Shown here: piece after piece, positions 413-19,193 of the stretch
How positions within the stretch are numbered: position 1 is the first letter of the stretch
Layout of the letters: each line of letters starts with the position of its first letter
IMG/VR virus record: IMGVR_UViG_3300009514_000004
Location: 62,001-126,000 of that record
Source: a virus
Reading direction: 5' to 3' (one strand)
Length of the DNA stretch: 64,000 bases
Made by a program: the position numbers and the translations under genes
The notes under the pieces: model-generated
What the model saw: the letters and a program-made list of their open reading frames with translations, nothing else
What the model was told of the DNA's origin: nothing
The model's database searches: none

Positions 413-605
413 AAACGTCGGGGTGGATCGGGTCGGAGGTCGGTACGGTAGCCCTTCGATAGGGCTTCTGTAAGAGGAGCACATCTCCGACATAGACGAC
501 CTCGTGACGGCACGAGGAGCTACGCCTGCGCGGCCCCAAAGGTGGATGCGCAGAGCATCAGCTCGCACGCAACCTTCGGCCCGGGACCCATTCCAAGGTG
601 CAGGG
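413..605 (+). promoter_or_regulatory. Leader region of the ribonucleotide reductase gene
   Basis: This 193-base gap holds a hairpin (stem 450-455/461-466, AGCCCT with AGGGCT, 5-base loop) and the box CTTCGATAGGGCTTC at 454-468, which recurs with one mismatch at 48959-48973 ahead of the capsid unit. A purine-rich GAGGAG lies at 475-480 without a good start behind it. I read the gap as a promoter/leader. I see no convincing cobalamin-riboswitch B12 box although the downstream enzyme is probably B12-dependent. Confidence 0.35.
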
Positions 606-5375: not shown

Positions 5376-5394
5376 CTCCCCTCAGCCGCCTTCC

Positions 5395-5404
5395 GATGGG
5401 GTAA
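5395..5404 (+). promoter_or_regulatory. GATGGGGTAA box, putative promoter element
   Basis: One instance of a recurring G(A/G)TGGGGTA box found between transcription units (also near 9937, 15066, 21481, with shorter GGGGTA versions near 8274, 26050, 52803 and 63795). It lies just after the reductase stop and 8 bases before the next ATG. I infer a -10-like element; its function is not shown by the sequence. Confidence 0.4.
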
Positions 5405-5412
5405 AGAGAGGC

Positions 5413-5919
5413 ATGGATGACGCGTTTCATGTCGTGCTTCTCGAGGGGGTCTACGCGACCCAGAACAACGCGCGGGTTGTAGTGGGGGACTCCTCGACCA
5501 CTGACGTGGTTGAGGAGTTCCGGCGTCTGACCGGCCGGGAAGTCAAAGTGCTGCTCCAGCACGTTCCTCCGGTGGTGTACTCCGACCGATGGGGGGGAGG
5601 CTCCTGCTTGTGGGAGGGGTCGGGTAACTGTCCAGCTGGTCACCACCTGAACCCTGGATTCCTCCTCAACGTCGACCTGGATGGGGTACTAGAGGAAGAC
5701 GAGGTCTCCGGGACCTGGTCGGTACGCTCCGCCACGGAGTCTCACATCCTCCCCCTCTCGATGCTGGAAGGGCACCATGTCCGTGTTGTTGTAGTCCCCC
5801 TACCTGACCTCGAAGCCATGAAGGCGTCACTCGAAGCTGGTGACCCCACCAAGGCCCTCGAGCTGGGCGCGCAGATAAAGCGGCTCAGCGAAGTCCTCTC
5901 TCAGCTCCGGAATCTCTAG
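5413..5919 (+). CDS. Hypothetical protein, 168 aa
   Basis: Not recognised. ATG follows AGAGAGG and the GATGGGGTAA box. The middle contains a cysteine/histidine-rich stretch (GGSCLWEGSGNCPAGHH) that could bind a metal; the C-terminus (EAMKASLEAGDPTKAL to LSQLRNL) is a predicted helical coil. Its TAG stop overlaps the GTG start of the helicase gene by one base, so the two are probably cotranslated. Position between reductase and helicase suggests a role in DNA metabolism, but nothing in the protein proves it. Confidence 0.75.
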   Translation: MDDAFHVVLLEGVYATQNNARVVVGDSSTTDVVEEFRRLTGREVKVLLQHVPPVVYSDRWGGGSCLWEGSGNCPAGHHLNPGFLLNVDLDGVLEEDEVSGTWSVRSATESHILPLSMLEGHHVRVVVVPLPDLEAMKASLEAGDPTKALELGAQIKRLSEVLSQLRNL

Positions 5920-8261
5920 TGGCAGCCAAGTACCACTCTGGAAGGGTCCACTCGGTTCTGTTCGAGAACCCCGCCCAGGCGTTCTACATCCTCCGGATGC
6001 TCCTCGACGGGCCTGCTGCTTTCGACGAGTTCGGCGTCCCGGTTCAGTACACCACGGTGAAGGGCTACGTCCCCGGCCTCGACGTCAAGATCGGGACGTG
6101 GTTCGGGTTCGAGGCGAGCTGGACAACCCACCCCAGATACGGCCGGCAGCTGGCCATCGCCAAAGCCCCGGTGCTCAAGAACGGGTGGGACCCCGACAAC
6201 GCAGCCAACGTCCTGGTGTCGCACGGCGTGGGATCGAGCACGGTTCTCCAGGTCCGTGGGCACTTCGGCGACGACAAGTTCGTCGCCACCCTCGACGACG
6301 TCAAGCAGCTCGAGCAGGTGCCGGGCATCAACCGTTTCACGGCGATGCACATCAACCACCGGTGGAAGACCGCCAAGGCGTTTTTCAAGACGTTGCCGTA
6401 CCTGACCGACGCCGGCATCCCGAAGTTCCGCATCGGACAGGTCTGGGGTCGGTTCGGCGACGACGTCGTCGACTTCATCAACGACAACCCCTGGAAGCTC
6501 GTCGAGGTCGACGGCATCACCTTCGCCCAGACCGACGAGATCGCGCGCAAGCTCGGCCTGGACATGACCTCTAGTCACCGCATCCGCGGCGCCGTCCTGT
6601 ACGCGTCGAGGGCGCAGAAGGTCCAGGGACACCTCTACTCGGGCTCGGGCCCGTTCGTGACGGCAGTGCGGGGCCTGCTTCGAGGGAGCGCCCCTACCCG
6701 CGACATCGTGACCAACCTGGCCGACGCCAACAACGAGGGCGTGCTCATCGTCGACCGGGACACCAAGCCGGGGACCACAGCCATCTACGAGCCGGCGGCC
6801 TACCAGCTCGAAGCCGAATCCGCCCGCCTCCTGAGTGAGCGCATGAAGACGGCCTCCCCTACGGAGCTGTACCGGGACAGCCTCAACATGTACAGCCCGG
6901 CAACCCGCAAGCTGGCTGAGGAGGGTGGGTCCCTCGACGATGTGGCCCGCCTGGCAGTCAAGGAGTGGGAGGCCTTGTCCAAGATCAGTTTCTCTCCCAA
7001 GCAGGTCACTGGCATCGTCAACGCCCTGACCAAGCCCGTGTCGGTCTTGACCGGTCTGCCGGGGACAGGCAAGACGACCAGCCTGCGTGCCTTGGTGGAC
7101 ATCCTGGCCGACTCCGGGGTCAGGTTCTTACAGGTGGCGCCCACCGGCATCGCGGCGAAGAACCTGGCCAGCGTGTCGGGGTACTCGGCGTCGACCATTC
7201 ACCGGGCCTTCTCCGCCAAGGGGGAAACCGGTGGAGACCGGGATGCGACCTACGCGGGTGTCGTAGGGGACAGCAAGGCTCCCAGCGGCAAGATCGGTGG
7301 TGGGTGGCAGTGGGGGTACTCCCCGGAGGCTCCCCACCCGGCCTCGGTCCTGGTCGTCGACGAGTCCTCGATGGTCGACCAGGCGCTGCTGTTCCAGCTG
7401 CTGCATTGCACCAGTGACCAGTGCCGCATTGTGTTCGTAGGAGACGCGGCCCAGCTTCCCTCTGTAGGCCCCGGAAACGTGCTCAGGAGCCTCGCGGGGT
7501 ACGACCCCCTCCCCAAGGTAGCCCTGACCGAAATCTTCCGTCAGAAGGACACCTCCGGCATCGTGTTCGCCGCTCACGCGATTCATGCCGGTCAGGTCCC
7601 GGACACCTCGTCGTACAAGGCCGATTTCACCCTGTTCGAGGCTCACTCGGAGTCCCGGGTCAAGGAGATCGTCGAGCGTCTGGCGATGAACCTGTACGCC
7701 AAGCGGCTCAACTTCCAGGTGCTGTCCCCGCGTCATGGCGGGACCGTCGGGGTCACCAGCCTCAACAAGCACCTGCGGGAGCTACTCAACCCCCGGGACT
7801 CCTCCAAGCGCGAGGTCAAGCTGGGGGAGACGGTGCGCGAGGGCGACCGGGTGATGATCGTCCGCAACAACTACAAGCTCGAGGTCGTCAACGGGGACGT
7901 CGGCAAGGTCGAGAAGATCGACACCTCGCGCAAGATCGTCATCGTCAAGGTGTTCGGCGCGGTTCCCCTGCACGTCGAGTTCAAGTTCAACGAGGTCGCG
8001 GTGTACTTGCGCCTGGCTTACGCGTGCACGGTCCACAAGAGCCAGGGCCTCGAGTACGACGTGATCGTGATGCCCCTGGTCGACGGGTTCAAGCACCAGC
8101 TCCAGCGGAACCTGCTTTACACCGCCATCACCCGGGCCCGACGACGGGTCGTTCTGGTGGGCACTCAGTCGGCGCTGAGCAAGGCTGTGCACAACAACAG
8201 AGAGGACGCTCGAAACACCCTGTTCATCGAGCGCCTCGAAGCCCTCCGATCAACCGCCTAG
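5919..8261 (+). CDS. recD2: RecD2/TraA-like superfamily 1B DNA helicase
   Basis: 5'-3' ATP-dependent DNA helicase, 780 aa. The N-terminal third has the RecD2 OB-fold and helix-hairpin region (VPVQYTTVKGYVPG, LEQVPGINRFTAMHI, WKLVEVDGITFAQTDEIA). Walker A GLPGTGKTT lies at residues 379-387, Walker B VLVVDESSMVD near 477, a FRQ motif (TEIFRQKDTSG) follows, and motif V/VI (CTVHKSQGLEYD and YTAITRARRRV) closes the fold. Length matches RecD2. GTG start overlaps the previous stop. RecD2 proteins act alone in repair and replication-fork processing; here it probably serves phage replication or recombination together with RecA and SbcCD encoded downstream. Confidence 0.93.
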   Translation: MAAKYHSGRVHSVLFENPAQAFYILRMLLDGPAAFDEFGVPVQYTTVKGYVPGLDVKIGTWFGFEASWTTHPRYGRQLAIAKAPVLKNGWDPDNAANVLVSHGVGSSTVLQVRGHFGDDKFVATLDDVKQLEQVPGINRFTAMHINHRWKTAKAFFKTLPYLTDAGIPKFRIGQVWGRFGDDVVDFINDNPWKLVEVDGITFAQTDEIARKLGLDMTSSHRIRGAVLYASRAQKVQGHLYSGSGPFVTAVRGLLRGSAPTRDIVTNLADANNEGVLIVDRDTKPGTTAIYEPAAYQLEAESARLLSERMKTASPTELYRDSLNMYSPATRKLAEEGGSLDDVARLAVKEWEALSKISFSPKQVTGIVNALTKPVSVLTGLPGTGKTTSLRALVDILADSGVRFLQVAPTGIAAKNLASVSGYSASTIHRAFSAKGETGGDRDATYAGVVGDSKAPSGKIGGGWQWGYSPEAPHPASVLVVDESSMVDQALLFQLLHCTSDQCRIVFVGDAAQLPSVGPGNVLRSLAGYDPLPKVALTEIFRQKDTSGIVFAAHAIHAGQVPDTSSYKADFTLFEAHSESRVKEIVERLAMNLYAKRLNFQVLSPRHGGTVGVTSLNKHLRELLNPRDSSKREVKLGETVREGDRVMIVRNNYKLEVVNGDVGKVEKIDTSRKIVIVKVFGAVPLHVEFKFNEVAVYLRLAYACTVHKSQGLEYDVIVMPLVDGFKHQLQRNLLYTAITRARRRVVLVGTQSALSKAVHNNREDARNTLFIERLEALRSTA

Positions 8262-8301
8262 ATAGCGTAACTAGGGGTAGCTACTACTTTCGGAGCATGT
8301 C

Positions 8302-8733
8302 ATGAGTCTCGAGCTGACCCCTGAAGAGCGGGCGTACTTGCGTGACATCGCGCAAAGCGTCCGCGTTACCAAGATCGTCTGCACCCGTTCCGTCAAGGGG
8401 AAGGGCGGTGACACTTTCCTCGGTTTCAGCGCCGTCTGGGACTCCGTCCAGGACGATGGCGGCCAGGACCTCGTCTCCAACCTGGAGGACGAGGAGATCG
8501 AGATCGAGGGTCAGGCCGCCGGTCGTGACCTCACCGACGCCAAGATCGCCGCCTGTTTCGTAGCCCTGACTGTCGAGGAGCAGGCATTCACCAACGCGGC
8601 AGCCAACGGTACAGTGTCGTCTGACCGGGCCAAGGCTCACATCAACCGATCCCGCCAGAACTACCTGCGCAAGATGATCGAGCTGAAGCGGGACCGCGAG
8701 GAACGGGATCGGAAGCGAGCGTCGAACACGTGA
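8302..8733 (+). CDS. Hypothetical protein, 143 aa
   Basis: Not recognised. Start ATG is preceded by CGGAG and by a GGGGTA box at 8274-8279. The protein has an N-terminal helix (LTPEERAYLRDIAQSV), a beta-rich core (FLGFSAVWDSVQDDGGQ) and a basic C-terminal helix (RQNYLRKMIELKRDREERDRKRAS) that could touch nucleic acid. Its stop overlaps the GTG start of the next gene (GTGA), so translation is likely coupled to the UvsY-like gene. Confidence 0.75.
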   Translation: MSLELTPEERAYLRDIAQSVRVTKIVCTRSVKGKGGDTFLGFSAVWDSVQDDGGQDLVSNLEDEEIEIEGQAAGRDLTDAKIAACFVALTVEEQAFTNAAANGTVSSDRAKAHINRSRQNYLRKMIELKRDREERDRKRASNT

Positions 8734-9923
8734 CAGCGACCCCACCTGCAAGCACTCCCGACCAGCCGCCACCTTCCCTTCCGGATGTCGATCAGGACTA
8801 CGTCCAGCGCGTTTTCTCCGAGCTGTCGGAGATGGACGTACCGCTCGACCCCAACCCGTTGGAGCTAGGACCTCAACGCCTCCGGGAGAAGATCGCCGAG
8901 GTGCGCCGGATGCGGTCGCGTTGCGAGGCGATCTTCTTGCAGGTGTCCAAGGACCAGTACCACTACAACCGATTCCATCGGCTGCTCTCCACCGAGCTGT
9001 CGATCAAGACCAAGCGCCTCATCGCCGAGGATCCTGAAGTCCGCGCGGGTCGAGCAGCTGTCGATCGAGAAGCCTTGGCCCACATGAAACTCTGGTCGCT
9101 GGTCGCTGAGACCGAGCGACTCAGCAACTGCTTGTCGGATCTGGACACTGTCATGAAGGTGGTCAAGGCCAAGCGGTCGGACCTCTCGGACATTCAGGGT
9201 CGCATCAAGGACCAGATGCGGCTGTGCCACGACGAGATCACACACCTCCACGGGGTCTGGGGCTCCAAGCTCCCGCCCGACGCTGACAAGACGCCGTTGC
9301 TCCCGGGTCAAGGGACCGCGATCAAGAACCCCGACGACCTCGACGATTTCCTCAAGGACATCGAAGGGGAGATGCACCTCCGTCCGGACTACACCGAGGA
9401 CTACACCGAGGACGACGACGAGGTCGAGGTCGACGAGGTCGAGCCCGACGAGGTCGAGCCCGACGAGGACGACGACGAGGTCGAGGTCGACGAGGTCGAG
9501 GAGCCCGACGAGGTCGAGGTCGAGGTCGAGGAGCCCGACGAAGTCGAGCCCGAAGGGGATCCGGATCCGGAGCCGGAGCCGGAGGTGGTCGAGGAGACCA
9601 CCGAGACGCCCGAAGAGGAGACGCCCGAAGAGGAGCCCGATCCCGAGGCAGTCGAGAACGAGCTGGTCGACGAGGTGTCCCTCGAGGATCTCGAAGAGGC
9701 ACCGATCGAGAAAGCAGCTGCGGCACCGATCGAGACAGAACCCGAGCCGGAGCCGAAGGCGGATCAGAAGCCGAAGAAGCCGCCGGAGGCGGTAGACATC
9801 CTGCCTGGGTCGGCGACCGAGGCTGACGTCGAGGCGTTCCTGACGGGCACAGTGCCCGGCTCCGAGGATCCGTTCGGCGCGGTCGGCGACGATGACGTCG
9901 AGGCCCTGCTCAATTCTTTCTGA
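8730..9923 (+). CDS. UvsY-like recombination mediator candidate with long acidic tail
   Basis: 397 aa in two parts. Residues about 40-180 are helical with spacing like phage T4 UvsY (KDQYHYNRFHRLLSTEL, AHMKLWSLVAETERL, DLDTVMKVVKAKRSDL); UvsY loads the recombinase on SSB-covered DNA. Residues about 215-350 are an acidic, repetitive tail rich in DEVE and EPDE. The C-terminus (ATEADVEAFLTGT, DDDVEALLNSF) looks like a short interaction motif repeated twice. Neighbours are a candidate SSB, RuvC and RecA, as expected for a mediator. T4 UvsY lacks such a tail. Function is inferred from pattern and context. Confidence 0.5.
   Translation: MTATPPASTPDQPPPSLPDVDQDYVQRVFSELSEMDVPLDPNPLELGPQRLREKIAEVRRMRSRCEAIFLQVSKDQYHYNRFHRLLSTELSIKTKRLIAEDPEVRAGRAAVDREALAHMKLWSLVAETERLSNCLSDLDTVMKVVKAKRSDLSDIQGRIKDQMRLCHDEITHLHGVWGSKLPPDADKTPLLPGQGTAIKNPDDLDDFLKDIEGEMHLRPDYTEDYTEDDDEVEVDEVEPDEVEPDEDDDEVEVDEVEEPDEVEVEVEEPDEVEPEGDPDPEPEPEVVEETTETPEEETPEEEPDPEAVENELVDEVSLEDLEEAPIEKAAAAPIETEPEPEPKADQKPKKPPEAVDILPGSATEADVEAFLTGTVPGSEDPFGAVGDDDVEALLNSF
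9397..9548 (+). repeat. Degenerate in-frame GAGGTCGA/GACGAGGTCGAG repeat coding the acidic tail
   Basis: Short direct repeats based on GAGGTCGAG and GACGAGGTCGAGCCC run for about 150 bases in the UvsY-like gene, encoding alternating DEVE, EPDE and VEVE units. Such tracts expand and contract by slippage, so copy number may vary between isolates. Confidence 0.75.
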
Positions 9924-10750: not shown

Positions 10751-11428
10751 ATGCGCGTTCTAGGGCTAGACCCGTCGCTCACCCAGTTCGGCTGGGCTGT
10801 TCATGACACCGCGGAGACCGGTCGTGCACGCTGCGGCGCGCGCGGCCGGTTCCGCACTTCGTCGAAGACCTTGTTCATCGATCGCTACGTCCAGATGCGG
10901 ACGAACCTGCGGTCGCTCCTCCAGGAGATAGGACCGATGCGCGTGGGCTTGGAATTCCCGGTGTTCAACGACCTCTGGTCGGAGGGCATGTACGGGTTGT
11001 TCCTGTTCTCGTGCGAGGCGTTGCGGCTTGAGGGTCGTGACGTCGTGTTCTTCTCCCCGGGGCAAATCAAGCGCCACGCAGCGGACTTCCTCGACCGTCC
11101 TCGTGGCTGGAAGATGAAGAAGGGCGACATGGTCGAGGCGGCCAGGACCGACACCGGGGGCAAGGGTCGGTGGAACCACAACGAGGCGGACGCGTACTGG
11201 GTCGCCCGCGCGGCGGCTCGATTCTGGCAGGTCCACGATGACCTGCTGACCCCCGAGGAGTTGACCGAAGCGGAGGCGCACCAGTTCCTCCGCATCCATA
11301 CCTACAAACGAGGCAAGCGAGCTGGGCAGACCGTGCGTAAAGGCATCCTCCACCGGGAGGATGAGCGGTTTTTCCTGTGGTCTGGCCCTTCAGGAGGAGA
11401 CACCCGTGCCCCGGAAAGCCGCGCCTAA
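10751..11428 (+). CDS. RuvC-like Holliday junction resolvase
   Basis: 225 aa, RNase H fold. Acidic catalytic residues are visible in order: D7 in RVLGLDPSLTQFGW, E68 in VGLEFPVF, and H143/D147 in WNHNEADAYWVA. The tail beyond about residue 165 is basic and extends past typical RuvC. It resolves four-way junctions during recombination or prepares DNA for packaging; position directly before recA fits. The 3' end overlaps the recA start region by 23 bases, and the recA ribosome site lies inside this gene. Confidence 0.85.
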   Translation: MRVLGLDPSLTQFGWAVHDTAETGRARCGARGRFRTSSKTLFIDRYVQMRTNLRSLLQEIGPMRVGLEFPVFNDLWSEGMYGLFLFSCEALRLEGRDVVFFSPGQIKRHAADFLDRPRGWKMKKGDMVEAARTDTGGKGRWNHNEADAYWVARAAARFWQVHDDLLTPEELTEAEAHQFLRIHTYKRGKRAGQTVRKGILHREDERFFLWSGPSGGDTRAPESRA

Positions 11429-12710
11429 CACCAAGGCGGCCACCAATAAAAAGGCCACCAATAAGACCACGACGACCAAGAAGGCCAAAGGCAAGGCCAC
11501 TGCCATGGACGTGGTCGACGAGATGTTCGCCAAGGACAAGAAGAAGCTGAAGAGCCTTCAGGAGGCGGAAGTCCAGCTCGACACGACCCTGCTCAAGAAG
11601 CCCATCCCGCACAGGTCGACGGGCTCGATCGTGTTCAACTACGCGATCGGCGGGTCCAAGAACGTCTTCGGGGTACCCGCCTGCCCGGGAATCCCCAAGG
11701 CCAAGATCACCAACGTGTACGGCCCCGAGGCTTCCGGGAAGACGACCTTCGCCCTGACCTGCTGCGCCCAGGCCTGTCAGACGGGTGGGACCGCGGTCTT
11801 CATCGACCTCGAGAACGAGGTCGTGCCGAGTTACGCCAAGGCTCTCGGCGTACCGATCGAGAAGAAGCGGCAGTTCCGCCTCTACCAGCCCGAGACTCTG
11901 GATGAGGCCATCAAGCTGGCGGCCATGTACGCGGCCGCTGGCGTCGACATCATCGTCATCGATTCCGTCGGGGCCGGTATCCCGCAAGCCGCTATCGAGG
12001 CCGAGGAGAAGAACAAGAAAACCCAGCTGGGTCTCATCGCGACGATCTGGTCGCAGAAGCTGCCGCGACTCAAGCGCATCATCAAGAAGACCGGCACGTC
12101 CATCATTGGGATCGCGCAGCTGCGGTCCTCCATGGGCCAGGGCGCCAGCACCGTCCAGGGCGGCCGCGTCTGGAAGTATTACTCGGCCGTGCGGATGAAC
12201 TTCAGCGTCAAGGAGCAGGAGAAGGGCAAGGTCTACAACGCTGTCGAGAACAAGTACGAGGAGCAGGTCATCGGGGCCGAGTGCGAGGTCCGCCTCGACA
12301 AGTGCAAGGTCAGCGACCACCAGAAGCACAAGTACCGCTACTTCCTACGCTGGGGCGTGGGCATCGACGACTTCCGCTCGTACCTGCACGTGGCCCAGAA
12401 CCACAAGGCCATCGAGAAATCGGGCTCCTGGTTCAACTGGGAGCAGCCCGACGGGACCATCCTGCGGGCTCAAGGTTACGAGAAGTTCCGGCAGCTGGTC
12501 ATCGACACCCCTGGAGCTGTCGAACGTCTCGTGGAGCTGACCGTGACCCTTCTGGAGAGGGGCGCCGGGCACATCGCCTCTGATGAGGAGATAGACGATT
12601 TCATGGAGGTCGAGGACCTGCTCGCCAGCACCGGGGAGGAAGCTGACGTCGACGACATCCTGGCGGCGGCGGAGAAAGCGGTGGGTGGTAAGGAAGACTT
12701 CGACGAGTAG
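11406..12710 (+). CDS. recA: RecA-family recombinase
   Basis: 434 aa strand-exchange ATPase. GTG at 11406 is preferred because CAGGAGGAG sits 8 bases upstream; an in-frame start at 11361 lacks one. A Lys/Thr-rich N-terminal extension (residues 1-35) precedes the core. Walker A is GPEASGKTT at 106-114, Walker B VDIIVIDSVGAG, and the L1/L2 region includes GIAQLRSSMGQG. The C-terminus is acidic (DVDDILAAAEKAV), as in bacterial RecA. It works with the UvsY-like, SSB-like and RuvC-like neighbours. Confidence 0.93.
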   Translation: MPRKAAPNTKAATNKKATNKTTTTKKAKGKATAMDVVDEMFAKDKKKLKSLQEAEVQLDTTLLKKPIPHRSTGSIVFNYAIGGSKNVFGVPACPGIPKAKITNVYGPEASGKTTFALTCCAQACQTGGTAVFIDLENEVVPSYAKALGVPIEKKRQFRLYQPETLDEAIKLAAMYAAAGVDIIVIDSVGAGIPQAAIEAEEKNKKTQLGLIATIWSQKLPRLKRIIKKTGTSIIGIAQLRSSMGQGASTVQGGRVWKYYSAVRMNFSVKEQEKGKVYNAVENKYEEQVIGAECEVRLDKCKVSDHQKHKYRYFLRWGVGIDDFRSYLHVAQNHKAIEKSGSWFNWEQPDGTILRAQGYEKFRQLVIDTPGAVERLVELTVTLLERGAGHIASDEEIDDFMEVEDLLASTGEEADVDDILAAAEKAVGGKEDFDE

Positions 12711-12718
12711 AATGGGCC

Positions 12719-13951
12719 ATGGGCGTCACCGTCACCGTCACAGACTTCCAGTCGATCAAGAAGGCCGAGGTTTACATCCACGGGTTCACGGTCGTCACCG
12801 GGCCCAACAACACCGGCAAATCCGCCCTGGTGCGTGCGATCCGTGGGGTGTTCTCCAACATGCCCGGCCACAGTTTCGTCCGGCACGGCTGTAAGCAGTC
12901 CACCGTCACCCTGGAGTTCGACGATGGCAACTCCGTCACCTGGGAGAAGGGCAAGGGGGTCAACCGTTACACCATCAACGGCAAGGTCTACGACAAGGTT
13001 GACCGAGGTGTTCCACCGGAGGTTGCGGATCTGGGGGTCCACGCTATCCAGGCGGGCACCCACACCCTATGGCCGCAGATCGCGCCCCAGTTCACCGGCC
13101 AGATGTTTCTGCTCGACTTGCCGGGTTCAGCTGTTGCGGAGGCCGTCGCCGACGTCGACCGCGTCGGTGCCCTGAACCGGGCGCTGAAGGCATCCGAGAA
13201 AGATCGCCGATCGGCGGCCTCGACGCTGAAGGTCCGTCGCAAGGACCAGACCAGGCTCGAAGGGGAGCTGGAGGCGTTCAAAGGGCTCGACGACGCTCTC
13301 GCCCTGGTCGCGGAAGCAGAAGCCGAGCGTGAGCACTTGGGGAAAGTGGCCGAGGCAGCGGTGTGGGCAAAGAACCAGTTCACCAAGTACGTCGCGGCCA
13401 CGAGCCTGATCGAGCAGCTCTCCGGGGTCGACGAGGTCGATATCCCTTCGGCTGAGGACCTCCAGGCCCTCAAGGCGGAGCAGACGCGGCTCGAAGGTCT
13501 CGGGCGTCTCCACGAGAAACACAAGCAGGCCTCCGACCTGGTGGGACGTCTCAGGGGGGTGGAGAGCGTCGAGGTGCCCTCTTCCAAGGACCTCCAGGAG
13601 GTCCGTGAGGCCGCTGTAGAGCTTTCCCAGCTCGAGGCCTTGCTCCAGACCCAGACGCAGGCCCAAGCGCAGGTAGAACGTCTCCAGGGACTCGAGAGCG
13701 TCTCCCTCGACGTGGGCGCGACCGAGGCTGAGAAGTGGTTGGGGACCCTCACCTGGCTCGAAGCTCTACACAACCGAGGGAAGACCGCCAGGGACCAGGT
13801 CAAGCAGTCGCGGACCGACCTGGCCACCGCCGAGAAGGAGTATCAGGAAGCAGTCGCCGAGGTCTCCCGGTTGCTCGAAGGGTTGTCAGAGTGCCCCCTT
13901 TGCGGTTCCGCAGAGATGTCGCCCGAGCACCGGCACGAGGAAGTGGCGTAG
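12719..13951 (+). CDS. Rad50/SbcC N-terminal half: ATPase lobe, coiled coil and zinc hook
   Basis: 410 aa. Walker A GPNNTGKSA at residues 28-35 and a beta-rich ATPase lobe are followed by a long heptad-rich coiled coil (about 150-385) and a CPLC zinc-hook motif at residues 392-395, after which the protein stops. A complete SbcC would continue with the return coiled coil and the second ATPase lobe; that lobe is encoded separately at 18546, with Mre11/SbcD (14074) between. Both halves must assemble to make an ATP-binding site, so I infer a split Rad50. Repeated segments (SGVDEVDIPSAEDLQ, RGVESVEVPSSKDLQ, QGLESVSLDVG) show internal duplication in the coil. Confidence 0.82.
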   Translation: MGVTVTVTDFQSIKKAEVYIHGFTVVTGPNNTGKSALVRAIRGVFSNMPGHSFVRHGCKQSTVTLEFDDGNSVTWEKGKGVNRYTINGKVYDKVDRGVPPEVADLGVHAIQAGTHTLWPQIAPQFTGQMFLLDLPGSAVAEAVADVDRVGALNRALKASEKDRRSAASTLKVRRKDQTRLEGELEAFKGLDDALALVAEAEAEREHLGKVAEAAVWAKNQFTKYVAATSLIEQLSGVDEVDIPSAEDLQALKAEQTRLEGLGRLHEKHKQASDLVGRLRGVESVEVPSSKDLQEVREAAVELSQLEALLQTQTQAQAQVERLQGLESVSLDVGATEAEKWLGTLTWLEALHNRGKTARDQVKQSRTDLATAEKEYQEAVAEVSRLLEGLSECPLCGSAEMSPEHRHEEVA

Positions 13952-13957
13952 GCGGCG

Positions 13958-14077
13958 ATGAAATCCACAGACGACTATGATGCTCGAATTAGCGATTGGG
14001 TTGATTGGGCGGAGATCGTGTTCATCGTTTGCGGGATCCCGTTTCTCGCAGGCCTGGTCGTGGGGATGTGTATATGA
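13958..14077 (+). CDS. Small membrane protein, 39 aa
   Basis: Short frame between Rad50-N and the nuclease: an acidic head (MKSTDDYDARISDW) followed by one hydrophobic segment (EIVFIVCGIPFLAGLVVGM). Its TGA overlaps the nuclease ATG (ATGA), the same coupling used elsewhere here, which supports it as real. The ribosome site is weak (GGCGGC). Function unknown; a membrane anchor or a merely coupling frame are both possible. Confidence 0.5.
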   Translation: MKSTDDYDARISDWVDWAEIVFIVCGIPFLAGLVVGMCI

Positions 14078-15057
14078 TCAGGCTTCTCTGGCGCACCGAC
14101 CTGCACCTGTCGGACCGGACCCCGCAGTCGCGGACCGACGACTGGACTGAGGCCATCCTCGGCAAGATACGCAAGATCGGAGACATCGCCCGCGAGGTGG
14201 GTGCCGCCGGGGTCATCGACGGCGGGGACTTCTTCCACACCAAGACCCCAAGCAGGAACCCGCACCACCTGGTCGAGAAGGCGGCCCGAGCACACGAGGA
14301 CTACCCCTGTCCCGTCTGGTGCAACATCGGCAACCACGACTGCAAGTACGCTGACTACACCCTGGTCGACGAGAACCCGCTGGGGGTCCTGTTCAGCACG
14401 GGGGTGTTCAACCGGCTGTACGACGAGCACGAGGCCATCTTCACCACGCCCGAGGGCCTCAAGGTCCGCGTTGTCGGCATCCCTTACCACGGGGTCCGAT
14501 ACGACATGGAGCGCTTCCACAGCATCAAGAAAGGCGACGAGGACTGGCTCGTCGTGGTGGCGCACGTCCTGGCCTCTCCGGCGGGCGGGAAGATGTTCGA
14601 GGGCGAGGACATCGTCAAGTACGGCGATCTGCTCGAGACCGACGCCGACGTGTACTGTTTCGGGCACTGGCACATGGACCAGGGCGTCCAGTTCTTCAAG
14701 AAGCCCAACGGCGACGAGCTGGTCATCGTCAACGTCGGCAGCGGCTCTCGGGGGGCCCTGACCGAAGACGAGATGACCCGCGAGCCCAAGGTCATCGTGA
14801 TGAGGTTCGACGCCGAGGACCTGGGGCTCGGCCAGGTCACCTTGGACGTCCGACCTGCCGACGAGGTCTTCGACATCGAGGGGCGTGTTCGGGCCGAGGG
14901 TCGGCAGATGATGGTCGAGGCGTTCGTGGAGTCTCTCAAGGACGCTCTACAAGGTCAGGAGGGAGCCGACCTGGCCGAGGAAGTGCGGCAGTGGCCCAAC
15001 ATCGACGACCAGGTCCGAGAACGCGCCGTCGGGTATCTGGAGGAAGCCCAAATCTGA
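14074..15057 (+). CDS. sbcD: SbcD/Mre11-like metallophosphoesterase nuclease
   Basis: 327 aa. All phosphoesterase motifs are in order: RTDLHLSD, VIDGGDFFH, IGNHDC, VVVAHV and CFGHWHMDQ, giving a two-metal nuclease centre. Partner of the Rad50 halves at 12719 and 18546; together they process DNA ends. ATG at 14074 overlaps the preceding small frame. The C-terminal about 80 residues are helical and acidic (EVRQWPNIDDQVRERAV) and may bind the Rad50 coiled coil. Confidence 0.92.
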   Translation: MIRLLWRTDLHLSDRTPQSRTDDWTEAILGKIRKIGDIAREVGAAGVIDGGDFFHTKTPSRNPHHLVEKAARAHEDYPCPVWCNIGNHDCKYADYTLVDENPLGVLFSTGVFNRLYDEHEAIFTTPEGLKVRVVGIPYHGVRYDMERFHSIKKGDEDWLVVVAHVLASPAGGKMFEGEDIVKYGDLLETDADVYCFGHWHMDQGVQFFKKPNGDELVIVNVGSGSRGALTEDEMTREPKVIVMRFDAEDLGLGQVTLDVRPADEVFDIEGRVRAEGRQMMVEAFVESLKDALQGQEGADLAEEVRQWPNIDDQVRERAVGYLEEAQI

Positions 15058-15065
15058 TCCCCCTG

Positions 15066-15075
15066 GGTGGGGTAA
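15066..15075 (+). promoter_or_regulatory. GGTGGGGTAA box, putative promoter element
   Basis: Member of the GGGGTA box family, 9 bases after the nuclease stop and 28 bases before the kinase/phosphatase ATG, with a clear ribosome site (GGAGGAAAGG) in between. Confidence 0.4.
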
Positions 15076-15103
15076 CTACTTCTGCACGACCCAGGAGGAA
15101 AGG

Positions 15104-16075
15104 ATGTCGGGAGAGGTAGTCATCATCGCGGGGCCGCCGGCGAGCGGCAAGACAACGCAGGTCCAGGACTTCGTGGAGCGCGGTTACACCCGCATCAACC
15201 GCGACCTCCTGGACAAGCCTGGCCACGTCGCGCGGACTGACGACTGCGCCCTCCATCTGGCGCAGCTCTTCGACTCGGGCCAGGCGACCCGGTTCGTCCT
15301 CGACAACACGTACGGGACGAAGAAGCAGCGGGCTCTGCTCCTCGAGGTCGCCAGGGAGCGTGGACTCCCGGTCCACATCCGGGTCATGTCGACGACCCGC
15401 GAGCAGTGTCAGTTCCTGGCAGCGCGTCGGATGATTCAGAAGTACGGCAAGATGATGACCGCCGCCGAGATGAAGGCTTACAAGGCGGAGAACGGTCCCG
15501 ATCCCAACCTGTTCCCGCCGGTCGTGATCTCGGTCTTCTTCAAGAAGCGCGAGCAGCCGGAGCCCGAGGAGGGGTTCGCCTCCATCGAGTACATCCCGTT
15601 CGTGTTCGAGCTGGGGCCGGAGTACACCAACAGCGCGTACATCTTCGACTACGACGGGACGCTCCGGGACACGAAGAACGACGAGAAGTACCCGGTCGAC
15701 CAGGACAACATCGAGATCCGCCCGGGCGTCATCGGGGTCCTCAATCAGCTGGAGGCGCAAGGCCACCTGCTGCTCGGCATCTCGACCCAGTCGGGGGTCA
15801 CCAAGGGCGTCATGACCTGGGAGGAGTGTCAGGGCCTGTTCGAGTACACCAACGCGATGCTCGGCCACGACATCGAGACCGTGTTCTGTCCCCATCGGGC
15901 GGGGCCGCCCCAGTGCTACTGCCGCAAGCCCATGCCCGGCTGGGGCGTGTGGTTCATCGAGAAGTACAAGCTCGACCCCGCCAAGGTCGTTTACGTCGGG
16001 GACATGACGAGTGACAAGACCTTCTCAGGGAGAGCCGGGTTCAAGTTCGTCCACGCGGACCAATTCTTCGCGTAG
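15104..16075 (+). CDS. Polynucleotide 5'-kinase/3'-phosphatase (T4 Pnkp-like)
   Basis: 323 aa, bifunctional end-healing enzyme. Kinase domain first: P-loop GPPASGKT at 10-17 and INRDLL. Phosphatase domain second: HAD motif FDYDGTLRD with Asp182/Asp184, GISTQSG, and YVGDMTSDKTFSGRAG. A Cys-rich loop (CPHRAGPPQCYCRKP) is a zinc-binding feature of the HisB/GmhB-type HAD group. Domain order equals T4 Pnkp. In T4 the enzyme repairs tRNAs cut by host anticodon nucleases; no RNA ligase gene is seen in this window, so its partner may lie elsewhere. Confidence 0.9.
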   Translation: MSGEVVIIAGPPASGKTTQVQDFVERGYTRINRDLLDKPGHVARTDDCALHLAQLFDSGQATRFVLDNTYGTKKQRALLLEVARERGLPVHIRVMSTTREQCQFLAARRMIQKYGKMMTAAEMKAYKAENGPDPNLFPPVVISVFFKKREQPEPEEGFASIEYIPFVFELGPEYTNSAYIFDYDGTLRDTKNDEKYPVDQDNIEIRPGVIGVLNQLEAQGHLLLGISTQSGVTKGVMTWEECQGLFEYTNAMLGHDIETVFCPHRAGPPQCYCRKPMPGWGVWFIEKYKLDPAKVVYVGDMTSDKTFSGRAGFKFVHADQFFA

Positions 16076-16133
16076 GGATCCGGAAGCCTACGATCGCGCG
16101 GGTAGAGTGAGCGAGCCAGAGGAGGCTCGTTTC

Positions 16134-17087
16134 ATGCCACGTGCGTTCACGCTGTACTGGACCAATTTCAAGCGCTTCGAGGAGTGCCCTCAGAAGTTCC
16201 TCTGGTACAAGGGTTGGGGCACCATCGACGTCGGCGGCGGCCCGGGGAAGGGCAAACCCTATCCGGAGGAACCCTCGGAGCACCATGCCGCGATGGGGAC
16301 CGTGGTCCATGCCGGCATCGAGCGTCTCTACAAGGACGAGCTGTGGCGGAACCCTCAAACCCTGGTCGACAACCTCAAGCGGACGGTCCGCCGGGAGTTC
16401 GAGCTGGAGCTGGCGCGCCGTCACATCAACTGGTCCCACCGGGGCTGCCCCACCAAGCCCGACATGCTCCAGCTGTGCGAGACCAACGTGCTGGGTTACC
16501 TCCACACGATGAAGCACAACCGCCTCCTCGGCCCCTACGCTAAGACCGAGGTGGAGATCCTCGCCTACGCCAACCCGGAGACCCCCATCGGCGTCCGGGT
16601 CGACATCATCATTCGGCGGTCCGACACCGGCATCACGCTCCTGGATGGGAAGAACTCCAAGCGGTACAAGGACCGCAAGGGCAACCCGCTCTTCTATGTC
16701 GACCCCGACCAGCTCCGGTGGTCGGCCATGGCCTTCTATCTCAAGCACGGCCGGATGCCTGACCGCTTGGGGTTCGTCTACTTCCGCTACCCCTGGGGGT
16801 TCGTCCACGAGGGCGAAACCGAGCCTGTGACCGGTGTGGAATGGGTCCCTTTCACGATGGAGGACCTTGCGGGACTCGGTCATCGAGCTATCAAGGCCCG
16901 GGCTCAGATGGAGCGTGAAGAGTTCCCGGCTCAGCCCGTGCCCAAGATGTGCAAGTTCTGCGACTTCCAGTCGATCTGCCCGGAACGCCAGGCTCAGATC
17001 GAGAAGAACCGACGCCGGCCCAAGAACAAAGACGATTTCTGGGATGGGCTTGACGCGGAACCGGGTCTGATCGAGATCTCACTCTGA
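16134..17087 (+). CDS. PD-(D/E)XK nuclease with C-terminal cysteine cluster (Cas4/AddB-like)
   Basis: 317 aa. ATG at 16134 follows GAGGAGG; upstream in-frame starts (16011, 16107) overlap the kinase gene or lack a site. Nuclease core: MGTVVHAGIERL (motif I His), GVRVDIIIRRSDTG (Asp), LLDGKNSK (D/E-x-K variant), and QLRWSAMAFYL. One Cys lies near the N-terminus (FEECPQKF) and three near the end (CKFCDFQSIC), the 1+3 spacing of Fe-S-containing Cas4/AddB exonucleases. Probably a 5'-3' exonuclease in recombination or end processing. Confidence 0.8.
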   Translation: MPRAFTLYWTNFKRFEECPQKFLWYKGWGTIDVGGGPGKGKPYPEEPSEHHAAMGTVVHAGIERLYKDELWRNPQTLVDNLKRTVRREFELELARRHINWSHRGCPTKPDMLQLCETNVLGYLHTMKHNRLLGPYAKTEVEILAYANPETPIGVRVDIIIRRSDTGITLLDGKNSKRYKDRKGNPLFYVDPDQLRWSAMAFYLKHGRMPDRLGFVYFRYPWGFVHEGETEPVTGVEWVPFTMEDLAGLGHRAIKARAQMEREEFPAQPVPKMCKFCDFQSICPERQAQIEKNRRRPKNKDDFWDGLDAEPGLIEISL

Positions 17088-17119
17088 TCGACATGGCGTA
17101 GAAGGGGGTGGAGGTACCC

Positions 17120-17398
17120 ATGAGCGATGACCTGAAGCAGACCCTCGAGACGGCTATTCGTCGTCGGGATGAGCTGAGCGGGAAAGTGCAACGGGTCAAA
17201 GGTCGCCTGGAGAGCGCCCAGTCATCCCTCAAGGACGTGGTCGCCGAGTGCAAGGGCCGCGACATCGACCCGAAGAAGCTGGGCGCCACGGTCAAAGCCG
17301 TCAGGAAGAAGCTGACCGACTCCATCAAAACCGTCAACGACAAGATCGACGCCGCTGAGAAGCAGCTGGCGCCGTTTCTGAAGGAGGAGGCCGAGTGA
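17120..17398 (+). CDS. Small coiled-coil protein, possible Rad50 coil fragment
   Basis: 92 aa from ATG at 17120, which has GGTGGAGG upstream; a GTG at 17108 is also in frame. Entirely heptad-like (LESAQSSLKDVVAECKGRD, KKLTDSIKTVNDKI) with a GRDIDPKKLG break in the middle that resembles the turn found in return arms of SbcC coils. It lies in the same run as the split Rad50 genes and couples to the clamp gene by GTGA. Could supply part of the missing return coil; equally it may be an independent factor. Confidence 0.72.
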   Translation: MSDDLKQTLETAIRRRDELSGKVQRVKGRLESAQSSLKDVVAECKGRDIDPKKLGATVKAVRKKLTDSIKTVNDKIDAAEKQLAPFLKEEAE

Positions 17399-18540
17399 AG
17401 GTGGTCGTCGCGAAAAACGATCTGAACGCCGCGCTACAGATCGTCTCGACAAGCATCGCGTCCAAGGGGATGGAGATCGAGTCCCACTACGTGTTCCGTG
17501 CGGTGGAGGACGGCCACGTGGAAGTCCTCACGACGAGTGGTCGGGTGTTCTCGAGCGCGAAGTTTGTCGCCAAGGTCGAGGACGCCGACACGTACAAGGC
17601 TTTCACCATCGAGGGGTGGCGGCTCAAGAAGTGGTTGGGGTCGGTCGGCGACGTGGCCTTGAGTTTCACGTTCGACGGCACCCTGGTGACCGCGGCCGAG
17701 CCCAAGGGGACCAACGAGTTCCAGAGCCTCGACCCGGGGCTTTTCCCCTACTGGGATAACCACCTCCAGGAGGCGAAGTCGATCGCGACGGTGAAGGCCT
17801 ATCGGCTCCACAACGTCTTCTCCTACCTTAAGCAGTTCATGAACAGCGATGAGGGCGGCAACCCCGGCCTGTGTGTCACCGAGGTTCGGAACGGGCTGTT
17901 CTACGCGGCCACGGACACCTCAATCACGACCGTCGCGGTAGAGCCATTCAAAGACTCCACCCTGCGGGTGCACGGCAAAGACATCCCGACCCTCCAGAAG
18001 TTCCTCGCCCAGGCGGGAGATGAGGATGTCGAGGTCCTCGAGTACGACCAGGGCGTCTTCTTCCGCCGCGCCTCCGGGCCGGTGTTTGGTGAGGCTCGGT
18101 ACCGCTCCCCGTTCCCCAACGTGCGGCCACCCAAGAGCGACGACGCGGACCCGCACTGGTGGACGGTCTCGTGCGCCGAGATGGACACCAGCCTCAAGGC
18201 GGTCGAGGCGTCCGCGGCTCGCGAGGATAACCGGGTCTGGCTCAGGCCGCTCAACGGCAAGGTTCAGATCTCGATGCTGAGCCCCAACGGCCGTCATCAG
18301 AAGCGGGTGTTGGAATGCTCAGACTCGGGGACGACCGACGGCGCCCTGCCGATCCCGACCGATGGGTTCGCGATCGACCAGGTCACAATCGACCGGGTGC
18401 TGTCGCACTACGAAGGGGACGCGATCCGGCTGGGTATCACCACCAAGAGCGAGGCACCTCAGACAGGGTTCGTCAAGGTGACCGAGAAGCGCGGGGAGGA
18501 CCAGTTCCTCACGTGCGCCGCTTGGCTGATGGGGTACTAG
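17395..18540 (+). CDS. dnaN: DNA polymerase III beta-type sliding clamp
   Basis: 381 aa, close to the 366-aa norm for bacterial DnaN. Three repeated clamp domains are traceable: an N-terminal MKVVVAKNDLNAALQIV, a middle segment starting with SIATVKAYRLHNVFSYLKQF, and a C-terminal WWTVSCAEMDTSLKAVEAS with the final peptide-binding strand. Tethers the replicative polymerase to DNA; gamma/tau at 21498 is its loader. Identification by fold-like repeats and length; sequence is divergent. GTG start overlaps the previous stop. Confidence 0.75.
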   Translation: MKVVVAKNDLNAALQIVSTSIASKGMEIESHYVFRAVEDGHVEVLTTSGRVFSSAKFVAKVEDADTYKAFTIEGWRLKKWLGSVGDVALSFTFDGTLVTAAEPKGTNEFQSLDPGLFPYWDNHLQEAKSIATVKAYRLHNVFSYLKQFMNSDEGGNPGLCVTEVRNGLFYAATDTSITTVAVEPFKDSTLRVHGKDIPTLQKFLAQAGDEDVEVLEYDQGVFFRRASGPVFGEARYRSPFPNVRPPKSDDADPHWWTVSCAEMDTSLKAVEASAAREDNRVWLRPLNGKVQISMLSPNGRHQKRVLECSDSGTTDGALPIPTDGFAIDQVTIDRVLSHYEGDAIRLGITTKSEAPQTGFVKVTEKRGEDQFLTCAAWLMGY

Positions 18541-18545
18541 ACAGG

Positions 18546-19193
18546 GTGCCCGGACTTCCCTCCATGGTAGCCCTCCGATCCCAAGCCGATCGGGCGAAGG
18601 CCTTCCGGGACGCCGTGACAGGTCAACTCACGTCGGTCAACACGGAGATACAGCAGCTGGAGAACGAGGAGGCCTTGTTGGTCCTGGTCTCTGAGCTGTT
18701 CCGCCAGCTGATCGACGCCGAGATCACCTCGGGTGTACAGGCGGTCGAGAAGCTCCAGACCGAAGGCCTCCAGGCTGTATTCCCCGACATGGACCTGGTC
18801 GTCACTGCGCAGATCGAGGTCCTCCGGGGTAAGGTCTCGGTCTCTCTGCTCACCACACAGAAGCTCGACGACGGAACCGTGGTCGAGGGGTTGAGCAACG
18901 ACGCTTTCGGAGGTGCCTTGAGTACCGTTCAATCGGTCCTCATGCGAGTCATCGTGGTGCTTCGGCGCCGGATGCGCCCGCTCCTGGTGATGGATGAGTC
19001 TTTGCCGGCCTTCGACTCCAACTACGTTCACACGATGGGTCAGTTCCTTTCTCAGCTCTGTTCGCGTATGGGGGTGGATATCCTGTTGGTGACTCACAAC
19101 CCTGCCCTGGTCGAGGCAGCCGACCGCGCATTCAAGATTGTGCGCAAGAACGGCACCGTCGCCTTCCAGAGGCTCCCGATCAGCCTGCACTAG
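18546..19193 (+). CDS. Rad50/SbcC C-terminal half: second ATPase lobe
   Basis: 215 aa from GTG 18546 (ATG 18564 is an alternative; neither has a strong ribosome site). A short N-terminal coil (residues about 10-50) leads to an ABC ATPase lobe with signature-like DAFGGALSTVQSVL, Walker B RPLLVMDESLPAFDS (D-loop included) and the switch His in ILLVTHNP. There is no Walker A, which is supplied by the separate gene at 12719. Together they form a split Rad50 working with SbcD at 14074. Confidence 0.8.
   Translation: MPGLPSMVALRSQADRAKAFRDAVTGQLTSVNTEIQQLENEEALLVLVSELFRQLIDAEITSGVQAVEKLQTEGLQAVFPDMDLVVTAQIEVLRGKVSVSLLTTQKLDDGTVVEGLSNDAFGGALSTVQSVLMRVIVVLRRRMRPLLVMDESLPAFDSNYVHTMGQFLSQLCSRMGVDILLVTHNPALVEAADRAFKIVRKNGTVAFQRLPISLH

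What the first reader, a model, noticed from the sequence alone, without database searches (positions are those of the whole stretch)
12719..19193. Rad50/SbcC split into separate genes around Mre11
The N-terminal lobe with Walker A, outgoing coil and CPLC zinc hook ends at 13951; the C-terminal lobe with signature, Walker B and switch His is at 18546; SbcD lies between and a coiled-coil protein at 17120 may supply part of the return arm. An SMC-like ATPase that must be assembled from two or three chains is unusual and could be regulated by assembly.
Basis: partly seen in the sequence, partly recalled or inferred. Interest (0 to 1): 0.72.

Follow-up and report, generated by a model that had tools for sequence, protein, structure and literature searches.

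The report
Phage Rad50 split into three genes
A DNA-repair motor that in other organisms is one long protein (Rad50/SbcC) is here encoded in pieces, two ATPase halves plus probably a short helical arm, and the same cut recurs across many large phages and bacterial megaplasmids, some of which have rejoined the halves in swapped order.

Summary
Window 12719-13951 encodes a Rad50 N-lobe, an outgoing helical arm and a terminal CPLC zinc hook. Window 18546-19193 encodes the Rad50 C-lobe with a 72-residue arm helix. SbcD (14074-15057) and a ~92-aa coiled-coil protein (cc, 17120-17398) lie between.

This is not a local accident. Of 80 distinct N-half ORFs, 78 end within 25 residues of the hook. cc lies upstream of C in 60 of 65 distinct C-half loci. 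No viral ORF carries both halves. Complete and very large records hold one N, one C, one SbcD and no full-length Rad50, even when N and C are hundreds of kb apart.

The best support for joint function comes from megaplasmids. In at least eight, C-half and N-half are fused into one permuted ORF (C-lobe, N-lobe, arm, hook), with a small helical ORF just upstream. In Paenibacillus and Brevibacillus plasmids SbcD is fused to the N-half while cc and C stay separate. The breaks at hook|cc and cc|C were never seen healed.

Composite ATPase: strongly supported, unproven biochemically. cc as return arm: plausible, inferred. Regulation by assembly: untested. No description was found in the open-access papers searched.

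The parts
12719..13951 (+). Rad50/SbcC N-half: N-lobe with Walker A and Q-loop (about residues 1-134), five-helix outgoing arm (136-388), terminal CPLC zinc hook (392-395)
   Evidence: family alignment A7: both hook cysteines in 63/63 aligned rows
13418..13813 (+). three tandem 44-residue arm units inside the N-half (starting at residues 234, 278, 322: L-x-G-[VL]-x-x-V loop plus helix)
   Evidence: N-arm lengths in relatives cluster near 165, 220 and 262 residues with a few longer
14074..15057 (+). SbcD/Mre11 nuclease; residues D9, H11, D52, N87, H88, H164, H198, H200 invariant in the aligned relatives
17120..17398 (+). cc: ~92-aa coiled-coil protein, two helices around a conserved turn; proposed free-standing return-arm segment of Rad50
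   Evidence: no specific relative of known structure
17395..18540 (+). DNA polymerase sliding clamp, start overlapping the cc stop (GTGA); separates cc from C in this clade
18546..19193 (+). Rad50/SbcC C-half: arm helix (7-78), C-lobe with x-G-G-A signature (122-124), Walker B LLVMDE (146-151), H-switch VTH (182-184)
11361..12710 (+). UvsX/RecA-like recombinase directly upstream of the N-half (conserved neighbour)
16011..17087 (+). PD-(D/E)XK Cas4-like nuclease (conserved neighbour between SbcD and cc)

Best explanation
This is a Rad50/SbcC whose single chain has been cut at the tip of its coiled-coil hairpin, just after the zinc hook, and a second time in the return arm. The N-half (Walker A lobe, outgoing arm, hook) and the C-half (arm helix plus signature/Walker B lobe) assemble non-covalently into one ABC head. 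Two such heads sandwich ATP and act with SbcD as an Mre11-Rad50 nuclease in phage recombination. The small coiled-coil protein cc most likely completes the return arm between hook and C-half. Shown here: the folds of both halves, the conserved break points, one copy of each per genome, absence of a full-length Rad50, linkage to recombination genes, and natural fusions of the halves in swapped order. Inferred: physical assembly of the phage proteins, ATPase and nuclease activity, and the role of cc.
For: Folds and profiles. N-half ORFs end 6-25 residues after CxxC in 78 of 80 distinct cases and no viral ORF holds both halves. In 12 records searched with the C profile each has exactly one C-half; 9 of 10 records whose C was not in the fetched locus have it elsewhere or further on, e.g. 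N near 45 kb and C near 369 kb in one 376-kb contig. No full-length Rad50 in the records searched, including circular complete Tunturi_5 and complete Magritte. SbcD is present in each of ten records. Permuted fusions C-half+N-half ending in the hook, with a small helical ORF upstream, were read in eight megaplasmids, and the pMPPla107 fusion has relatives in 21 plasmid records, itself included. SbcD-N fusions with separate cc and C. N and C trees agree on the main clades. Solved P. furiosus Rad50 head structures contain the two lobes as separate chains (1f2u, 1ii8, 3qkr).
Against: No complex was predicted (no multimer tool) or measured. cc has no structural homologue beyond generic coiled coils. 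Return-arm length (cc about 92 + C-arm about 54) does not match the outgoing arm in most members (about 250 residues in the window) and hardly varies with it (r 0.2-0.3), so the arm cannot be a simple full-length two-strand coil. The signature serine seems to be replaced, so ATP-driven head engagement may differ. Magritte has N, C and SbcD but no recognisable hook or cc.
Confidence: 0.85

Rival explanations
1. Only two chains make the Rad50. cc is a separate accessory protein (for example a clamp or nuclease partner, or a regulator) that merely sits in the operon.
For: cc has no sequence match to Rad50 arms or solved Rad50 structures; in the window clade it is translationally coupled to the clamp; Magritte seems to do without it.
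Against: Where the clamp is elsewhere, cc still sits directly before the C-half (L125, L126, Bacillus phage vB_BboS-125, B. velezensis p3, Mvi-JY20) or before the permuted C-N fusion, and a weak cc match directly follows the N-half in Tunturi_5. cc HMM hits at E<0.1 among the ORFs of all loci were only cc genes and C-half arms. The one lineage lacking cc also lacks the hook.
Confidence: 0.35
2. The halves are decayed remnants of a broken rad50 gene and do not work together.
For: Signature serine not conserved; in some megaplasmids the SbcD neighbour seems to have lost its nuclease motifs.
Against: Walker A lysine, Walker B DE and switch His are invariant in 63 and 45 aligned rows; both halves are kept in all complete genomes examined and in very divergent phages; the break points are constant.
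Confidence: 0.04
3. The two halves are rejoined after transcription or translation (trans-splicing, split intein, frameshift) into an ordinary Rad50.
For: Split genes in phages sometimes carry inteins or introns (general knowledge); nothing in these loci.
Against: The halves lie from adjacent to about 320 kb apart (4.6 kb in the window); N-halves end within 25 residues of the hook with no intein-like tail; the cc piece and permuted fusions would not be needed.
Confidence: 0.02

Closest known systems
Mre11-Rad50 / SbcCD (E. coli SbcC, P. furiosus Rad50, T4 gp46/gp47)
   Same: ABC head made of N- and C-lobes, coiled-coil arm, CxxC zinc hook, partner SbcD/Mre11, location among recombination/replication genes
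   Different: Rad50 chain cut after the hook and again before the C-half arm; non-canonical signature; outgoing arm longer than the return pieces
Mre11/Rad50 fusion proteins (Mimivirus R555; PMC3175470)
   Same: Rearranged Mre11-Rad50 in viruses and plasmids; Paenibacillus/Brevibacillus SbcD-N fusions here are of that kind, and that paper noted a Bacillus phage fusion (0305phi8-36) in which one P-loop segment of SbcC was not observed
   Different: Fusion rather than fission; that paper describes no split or permuted Rad50 in the passages read
Split DNA polymerase III alpha and split RNA polymerase subunits of jumbo phages (PMC7824862)
   Same: Large single-chain enzymes encoded as separate genes (distant ones for Pol III alpha) that must assemble in trans
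   Different: Different enzymes; the same review treats jumbo-phage SbcC as an ordinary ortholog in the passages read
P. furiosus Rad50 head crystal constructs (1f2u, 1ii8, 3qkr)
   Same: N- and C-lobes as two separate chains forming one head
   Different: Laboratory constructs without most of the arm; here the split is natural and old

Membership tests
Rad50/SbcC | N-lobe with Walker A and Q-loop of the SMC/Rad50 type | tested here: met
   AAA_23/AAA_15/SMC_N hits in 43-62 of 63 members; Walker A G28, G33, K34 invariant, Q124 62/63; VIA Z 10-12 to SMC and Rad50 heads
Rad50/SbcC | C-lobe with Walker B, D-loop region and switch His | tested here: met
   D150, E151 and H184 invariant in 45/45; best structural match Rad50 C-lobe 9a9j_B Z 13.5, rmsd 3.4 over 166
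Rad50/SbcC | ABC signature LSGG[EQ] | tested here: not met
   Motif is x-G-G-[SAT] in the aligned family; serine to glycine if the invariant R134 is set on P. furiosus R805 (my alignment by eye)
Rad50/SbcC | CxxC zinc hook at the arm apex | tested here: met
   63/63 aligned N-halves; profile match to hook structures 1l8d and 6zff
Rad50/SbcC | single chain with N- and C-lobes joined through the arm | tested here: not met
   No viral ORF hit by both profiles; separate ORFs in every record searched
Rad50/SbcC | partner Mre11/SbcD encoded in the same genome | tested here: met
   10 of 10 records
Rad50/SbcC | ATP-dependent head dimerisation and nuclease activation | not testable with these tools
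   needs purified proteins
Rad50/SbcC | antiparallel coiled coil of matched outgoing and return strands | tested here: inconclusive
   Roughly matched in L125/L126, unmatched in most; no multimer model

The most novel reading that the evidence does not exclude
A widespread mobile-element lineage uses a three-chain Rad50: N-lobe/outgoing arm/hook, a free return-arm protein, and a C-lobe, so that the arm is open at its tip and its return strand is a separate, exchangeable subunit. A related clade on megaplasmids has rejoined the lobes in reverse order (circularly permuted Rad50) but keeps the arm break and a free cc-like protein. The covalent loop through the hook would then be dispensable for Rad50 function.
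Probability: 0.6. Interest if true: 0.78.

Novelty: new variant of a known kind. Interest (0 to 1): 0.7.

Why it matters
Current models of Rad50 (rod/ring transitions, signalling along the coil, hook opening) assume a continuous chain from N-lobe through the hook to the C-lobe. A lineage in which evolution has cut the chain at the hook and in the return arm, and elsewhere re-fused the lobes in reverse order, is a natural test of which connections matter. It also gives a ready-made way to make half-sites, mixed heads and arm swaps in an SMC-like motor. Practically, it explains genes annotated 'exonuclease', 'ATPase', 'chromosome segregation protein', 'ParA' or 'hypothetical' in phages and megaplasmids as parts of one machine.

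Tried and rejected
Literature search for 'split SbcC', 'split Rad50', separate polypeptides and permuted Rad50 found nothing; only open-access PMC is held, so prior description elsewhere cannot be excluded. A genome-contig scan with the Bacillus phage N-half returned only a true SMC, so chromosomal copies in bacteria remain unsurveyed. Aeromonas phage ST4_047 was first drawn in as an N-half, but it is a single-chain relative without CxxC and was set aside. MT836631 (H13) was an unrelated ATP-dependent endonuclease-like ORF. cc against solved structures gave only generic coils; cc against the C-half arm gave a weak profile match of doubtful meaning (probability 51%). Structural coverage of the outer arm (residues beyond about 185) is too thin to say how helices 190-388 pack. 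The 0305phi8-36 record was not recovered with the Paenibacillus queries.

Full report
WHAT WAS CHECKED. The window is bases 62001-126000 of a 138,380-base virus record classed as linear or unknown-ended, so possibly a fragment. It carries recombination/replication genes (UvsX, RuvC-like resolvase, clamp, clamp loader, primase) and head genes (terminase, portal, major head protein), so it is a tailed phage.

The N-half (12719-13951, 410 aa) matches phrog_16465 (1.8e-29) and the AAA_23/AAA_15 Rad50/SMC N-lobe families. The C-half (18546 or 18564 to 19193, 215 aa) matches phrog_15167, itself a family of 211 positions, almost end to end. So the public phage family library already holds the C-half as a stand-alone protein.

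STRUCTURE. AlphaFold2 with 63 aligned sequences gives the N-half a head lobe (residues 1-134) and five long helices (136-186, 190-234, 245-278, 289-327, 334-388) before the terminal CPLC (pLDDT 86.7). VIA places the lobe among SMC, RecF and Rad50 heads, Z about 10-12. The last 60 profile positions match the Rad50 zinc-hook structures 1l8d and 6zff and stop near the apex. The C-half is one 72-residue helix plus a lobe whose best matches are P. furiosus Rad50 C-lobe chains (9a9j_B Z 13.5, 1f2u_B Z 12.7; pLDDT 93.2). In 1f2u, 1ii8 and 3qkr the two lobes are separate chains, so a split head is structurally feasible.

MOTIFS. In the family, Walker A G28/G33/K34, Q124 (62/63), Walker B D150/E151, switch H184, R134 and both hook cysteines are invariant or nearly so. 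The ABC signature is x-G-G-[SAT] instead of LSGG[EQ]. Set on R134 = P. furiosus R805 (my alignment), the signature serine is glycine. SbcD keeps its expected metal-binding residues (D9, H11, D52, N87, H164, H198, H200 invariant in three relatives).

HOW COMMON. Scans of viral contigs with the SbcD, C and N profiles brought in about 120 loci. Among loci with 74 distinct SbcD sequences the commonest order is uvsX - N - SbcD - PD-(D/E)XK nuclease - cc - clamp - C (44 loci, plus variants and truncations). Of 80 distinct N-half ORFs, 78 end 6-25 residues after the start of CxxC; the exceptions are Magritte and a wrongly included single-chain protein of phage ST4. No ORF is hit by both N and C.

In L125 and L126 the order is N - cc - C - SbcD with cc and C overlapping by a few bases. 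In Bacillus phage vB_BboS-125 it is N - HNH - cc - C, with an SbcD-like stretch just downstream that is not annotated in the record. In Microcystis phage Mvi-JY20 it is N - SbcD - cc - C, though its cc scores weakly (0.02). In Tunturi_5 (308.7 kb, circular) C lies at 19 kb and N at 127-128 kb. In Magritte (133.2 kb) they lie at 0.3 and 94 kb.

NO SPARE RAD50. Searching with phrog_77 (SbcC), PF13476 and the C profile shows one C-half per record, N and C always in separate frames, and no full-length Rad50 in the records tested, including the two complete genomes above and contigs up to 619 kb. One record (G005) has a second AAA_23 hit in a 315-codon frame that was not examined. Of ten records whose C was outside the fetched locus (or re-tested), nine have it; the tenth is a 61-kb fragment.

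REARRANGEMENTS. The C-half of L126 found plasmid relatives. In Pseudomonas pBASL58, FeN3W and pMPPla107, Bosea RAC05, Methylorubrum AM1, Alteromonas, Aeromonas and Vibrio megaplasmids a single ORF of 573-668 aa carries the C-half first (C profile 2e-11 to 3e-23) and then the N-half (7e-13 to 4e-30), ending in a CxxC hook, with a small ORF, mostly helical in look, directly upstream. Only the Bosea and Methylorubrum copies of that small ORF score with the cc profile (3.7e-8, 3e-5); the others were judged by position and pattern. The pMPPla107 fusion has relatives in 21 plasmid records (itself included) from nine genera.

In Paenibacillus and Brevibacillus plasmids SbcD and the N-half are one 840-851-aa ORF, followed by separate cc-like (95-96 aa) and C (215 aa) genes. 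B. velezensis p3 has N - cc - C - x - SbcD. Permuted and SbcD-N forms are each one group with full support in both the N-lobe and C-lobe trees, and the two trees agree on the other main clades. Fusion of the halves is the strongest evidence that they act together (Rosetta-stone argument; inference).

WHAT cc IS. cc lies upstream of C within 6 kb in 60 of 65 distinct C-half loci. Of the five others, one lies just beyond a short locus (G007), two are short loci in whose records none was found (G012, G013), in Tunturi_5 a weak cc match (E 0.01) directly follows N, and Magritte has none. cc looks like two helices around a conserved turn. At E<0.1 its profile hits only cc genes and some C-half arms among the ORFs of all loci. 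It has no specific solved relative. Its constant company is the Rad50 halves, not the clamp, which supports a return-arm role without proving it.

ARM LENGTHS. From L131 to the hook the outgoing arm is 163-356 residues, in clusters near 165, 220 and 262 with a few longer. In the window the arm holds three 44-residue units, at residues 234, 278 and 322. cc (77-106 aa) and the C-arm are nearly constant and hardly follow N-arm length (r 0.28 and 0.21). The simplest reading (inference) is that cc plus C-arm pair with a constant base of the arm, roughly the whole arm in L125/L126, and that the extra N-arm units pack on themselves or on the partner arm.

MECHANISM (inferred except where cited). Two N-halves and two C-halves form two ABC heads with ATP at N-lobe Walker A and the opposite C-lobe x-G-G motif. 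SbcD binds at the arm base. N-arm hooks can pair through zinc. cc bridges from below the hook to the C-half helix, leaving the arm open at its tip. The complex would process DNA ends for the adjacent UvsX recombinase, as T4 gp46/47 is thought to do for T4 UvsX (general knowledge).

NOVELTY. The parts are known families. The three-gene arrangement, its conservation and the permuted fusions were not found in the open-access papers searched. The nearest statements are Mre11-Rad50 fusions (PMC3175470) and split polymerases of jumbo phages (PMC7824862). I file it as a new variant of a known kind.

Noticed in passing
window 38231-45211: A 2326-aa ORF between the portal and head-protease genes carries a eukaryotic-type DNA topoisomerase IB catalytic core at residues 973-1170 (Pfam 8.8e-25).
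   Followed up: no
window 504-5375: A 1623-aa ribonucleotide reductase ORF matches its family in four separate stretches, suggesting one or more inserted elements such as inteins.
   Followed up: no
window 50827-52776: A 649-aa ORF beside the major head protein gene matches a LAGLIDADG homing endonuclease family at its start and DNA methyltransferase-like families further on.
   Followed up: no
window 56059-63414: A 2451-aa ORF without any Pfam match.
   Followed up: no
L143, L145, L151, L155, L156 (gene after the permuted Rad50): In several gamma-proteobacterial megaplasmids the protein after the permuted Rad50 looks like an SbcD that has lost its nuclease motifs (weak or no match to the SbcD profile where tested).
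   Followed up: partly
L147 (Cetobacterium p3) 2056-6460: The N-half is spread over two overlapping ORFs, and an iscB gene sits between the C-half and the metallophosphoesterase.
   Followed up: no
L131 663-3827 (Vibrio phage 1.031.O): Opposite case: SbcD and what looks like a full-length Rad50 (with CPTC hook) in one 1054-aa chain.
   Followed up: no
L006, L007 (Microbacterium phage Magritte): N-half without a terminal CxxC and no detectable cc gene in the genome: hook and cc seem to have been lost together.
   Followed up: partly
L129 about 8250-9180 (NC_048735 22426-23352): An SbcD-like stretch in Bacillus phage vB_BboS-125 that is not annotated in the record.
   Followed up: no
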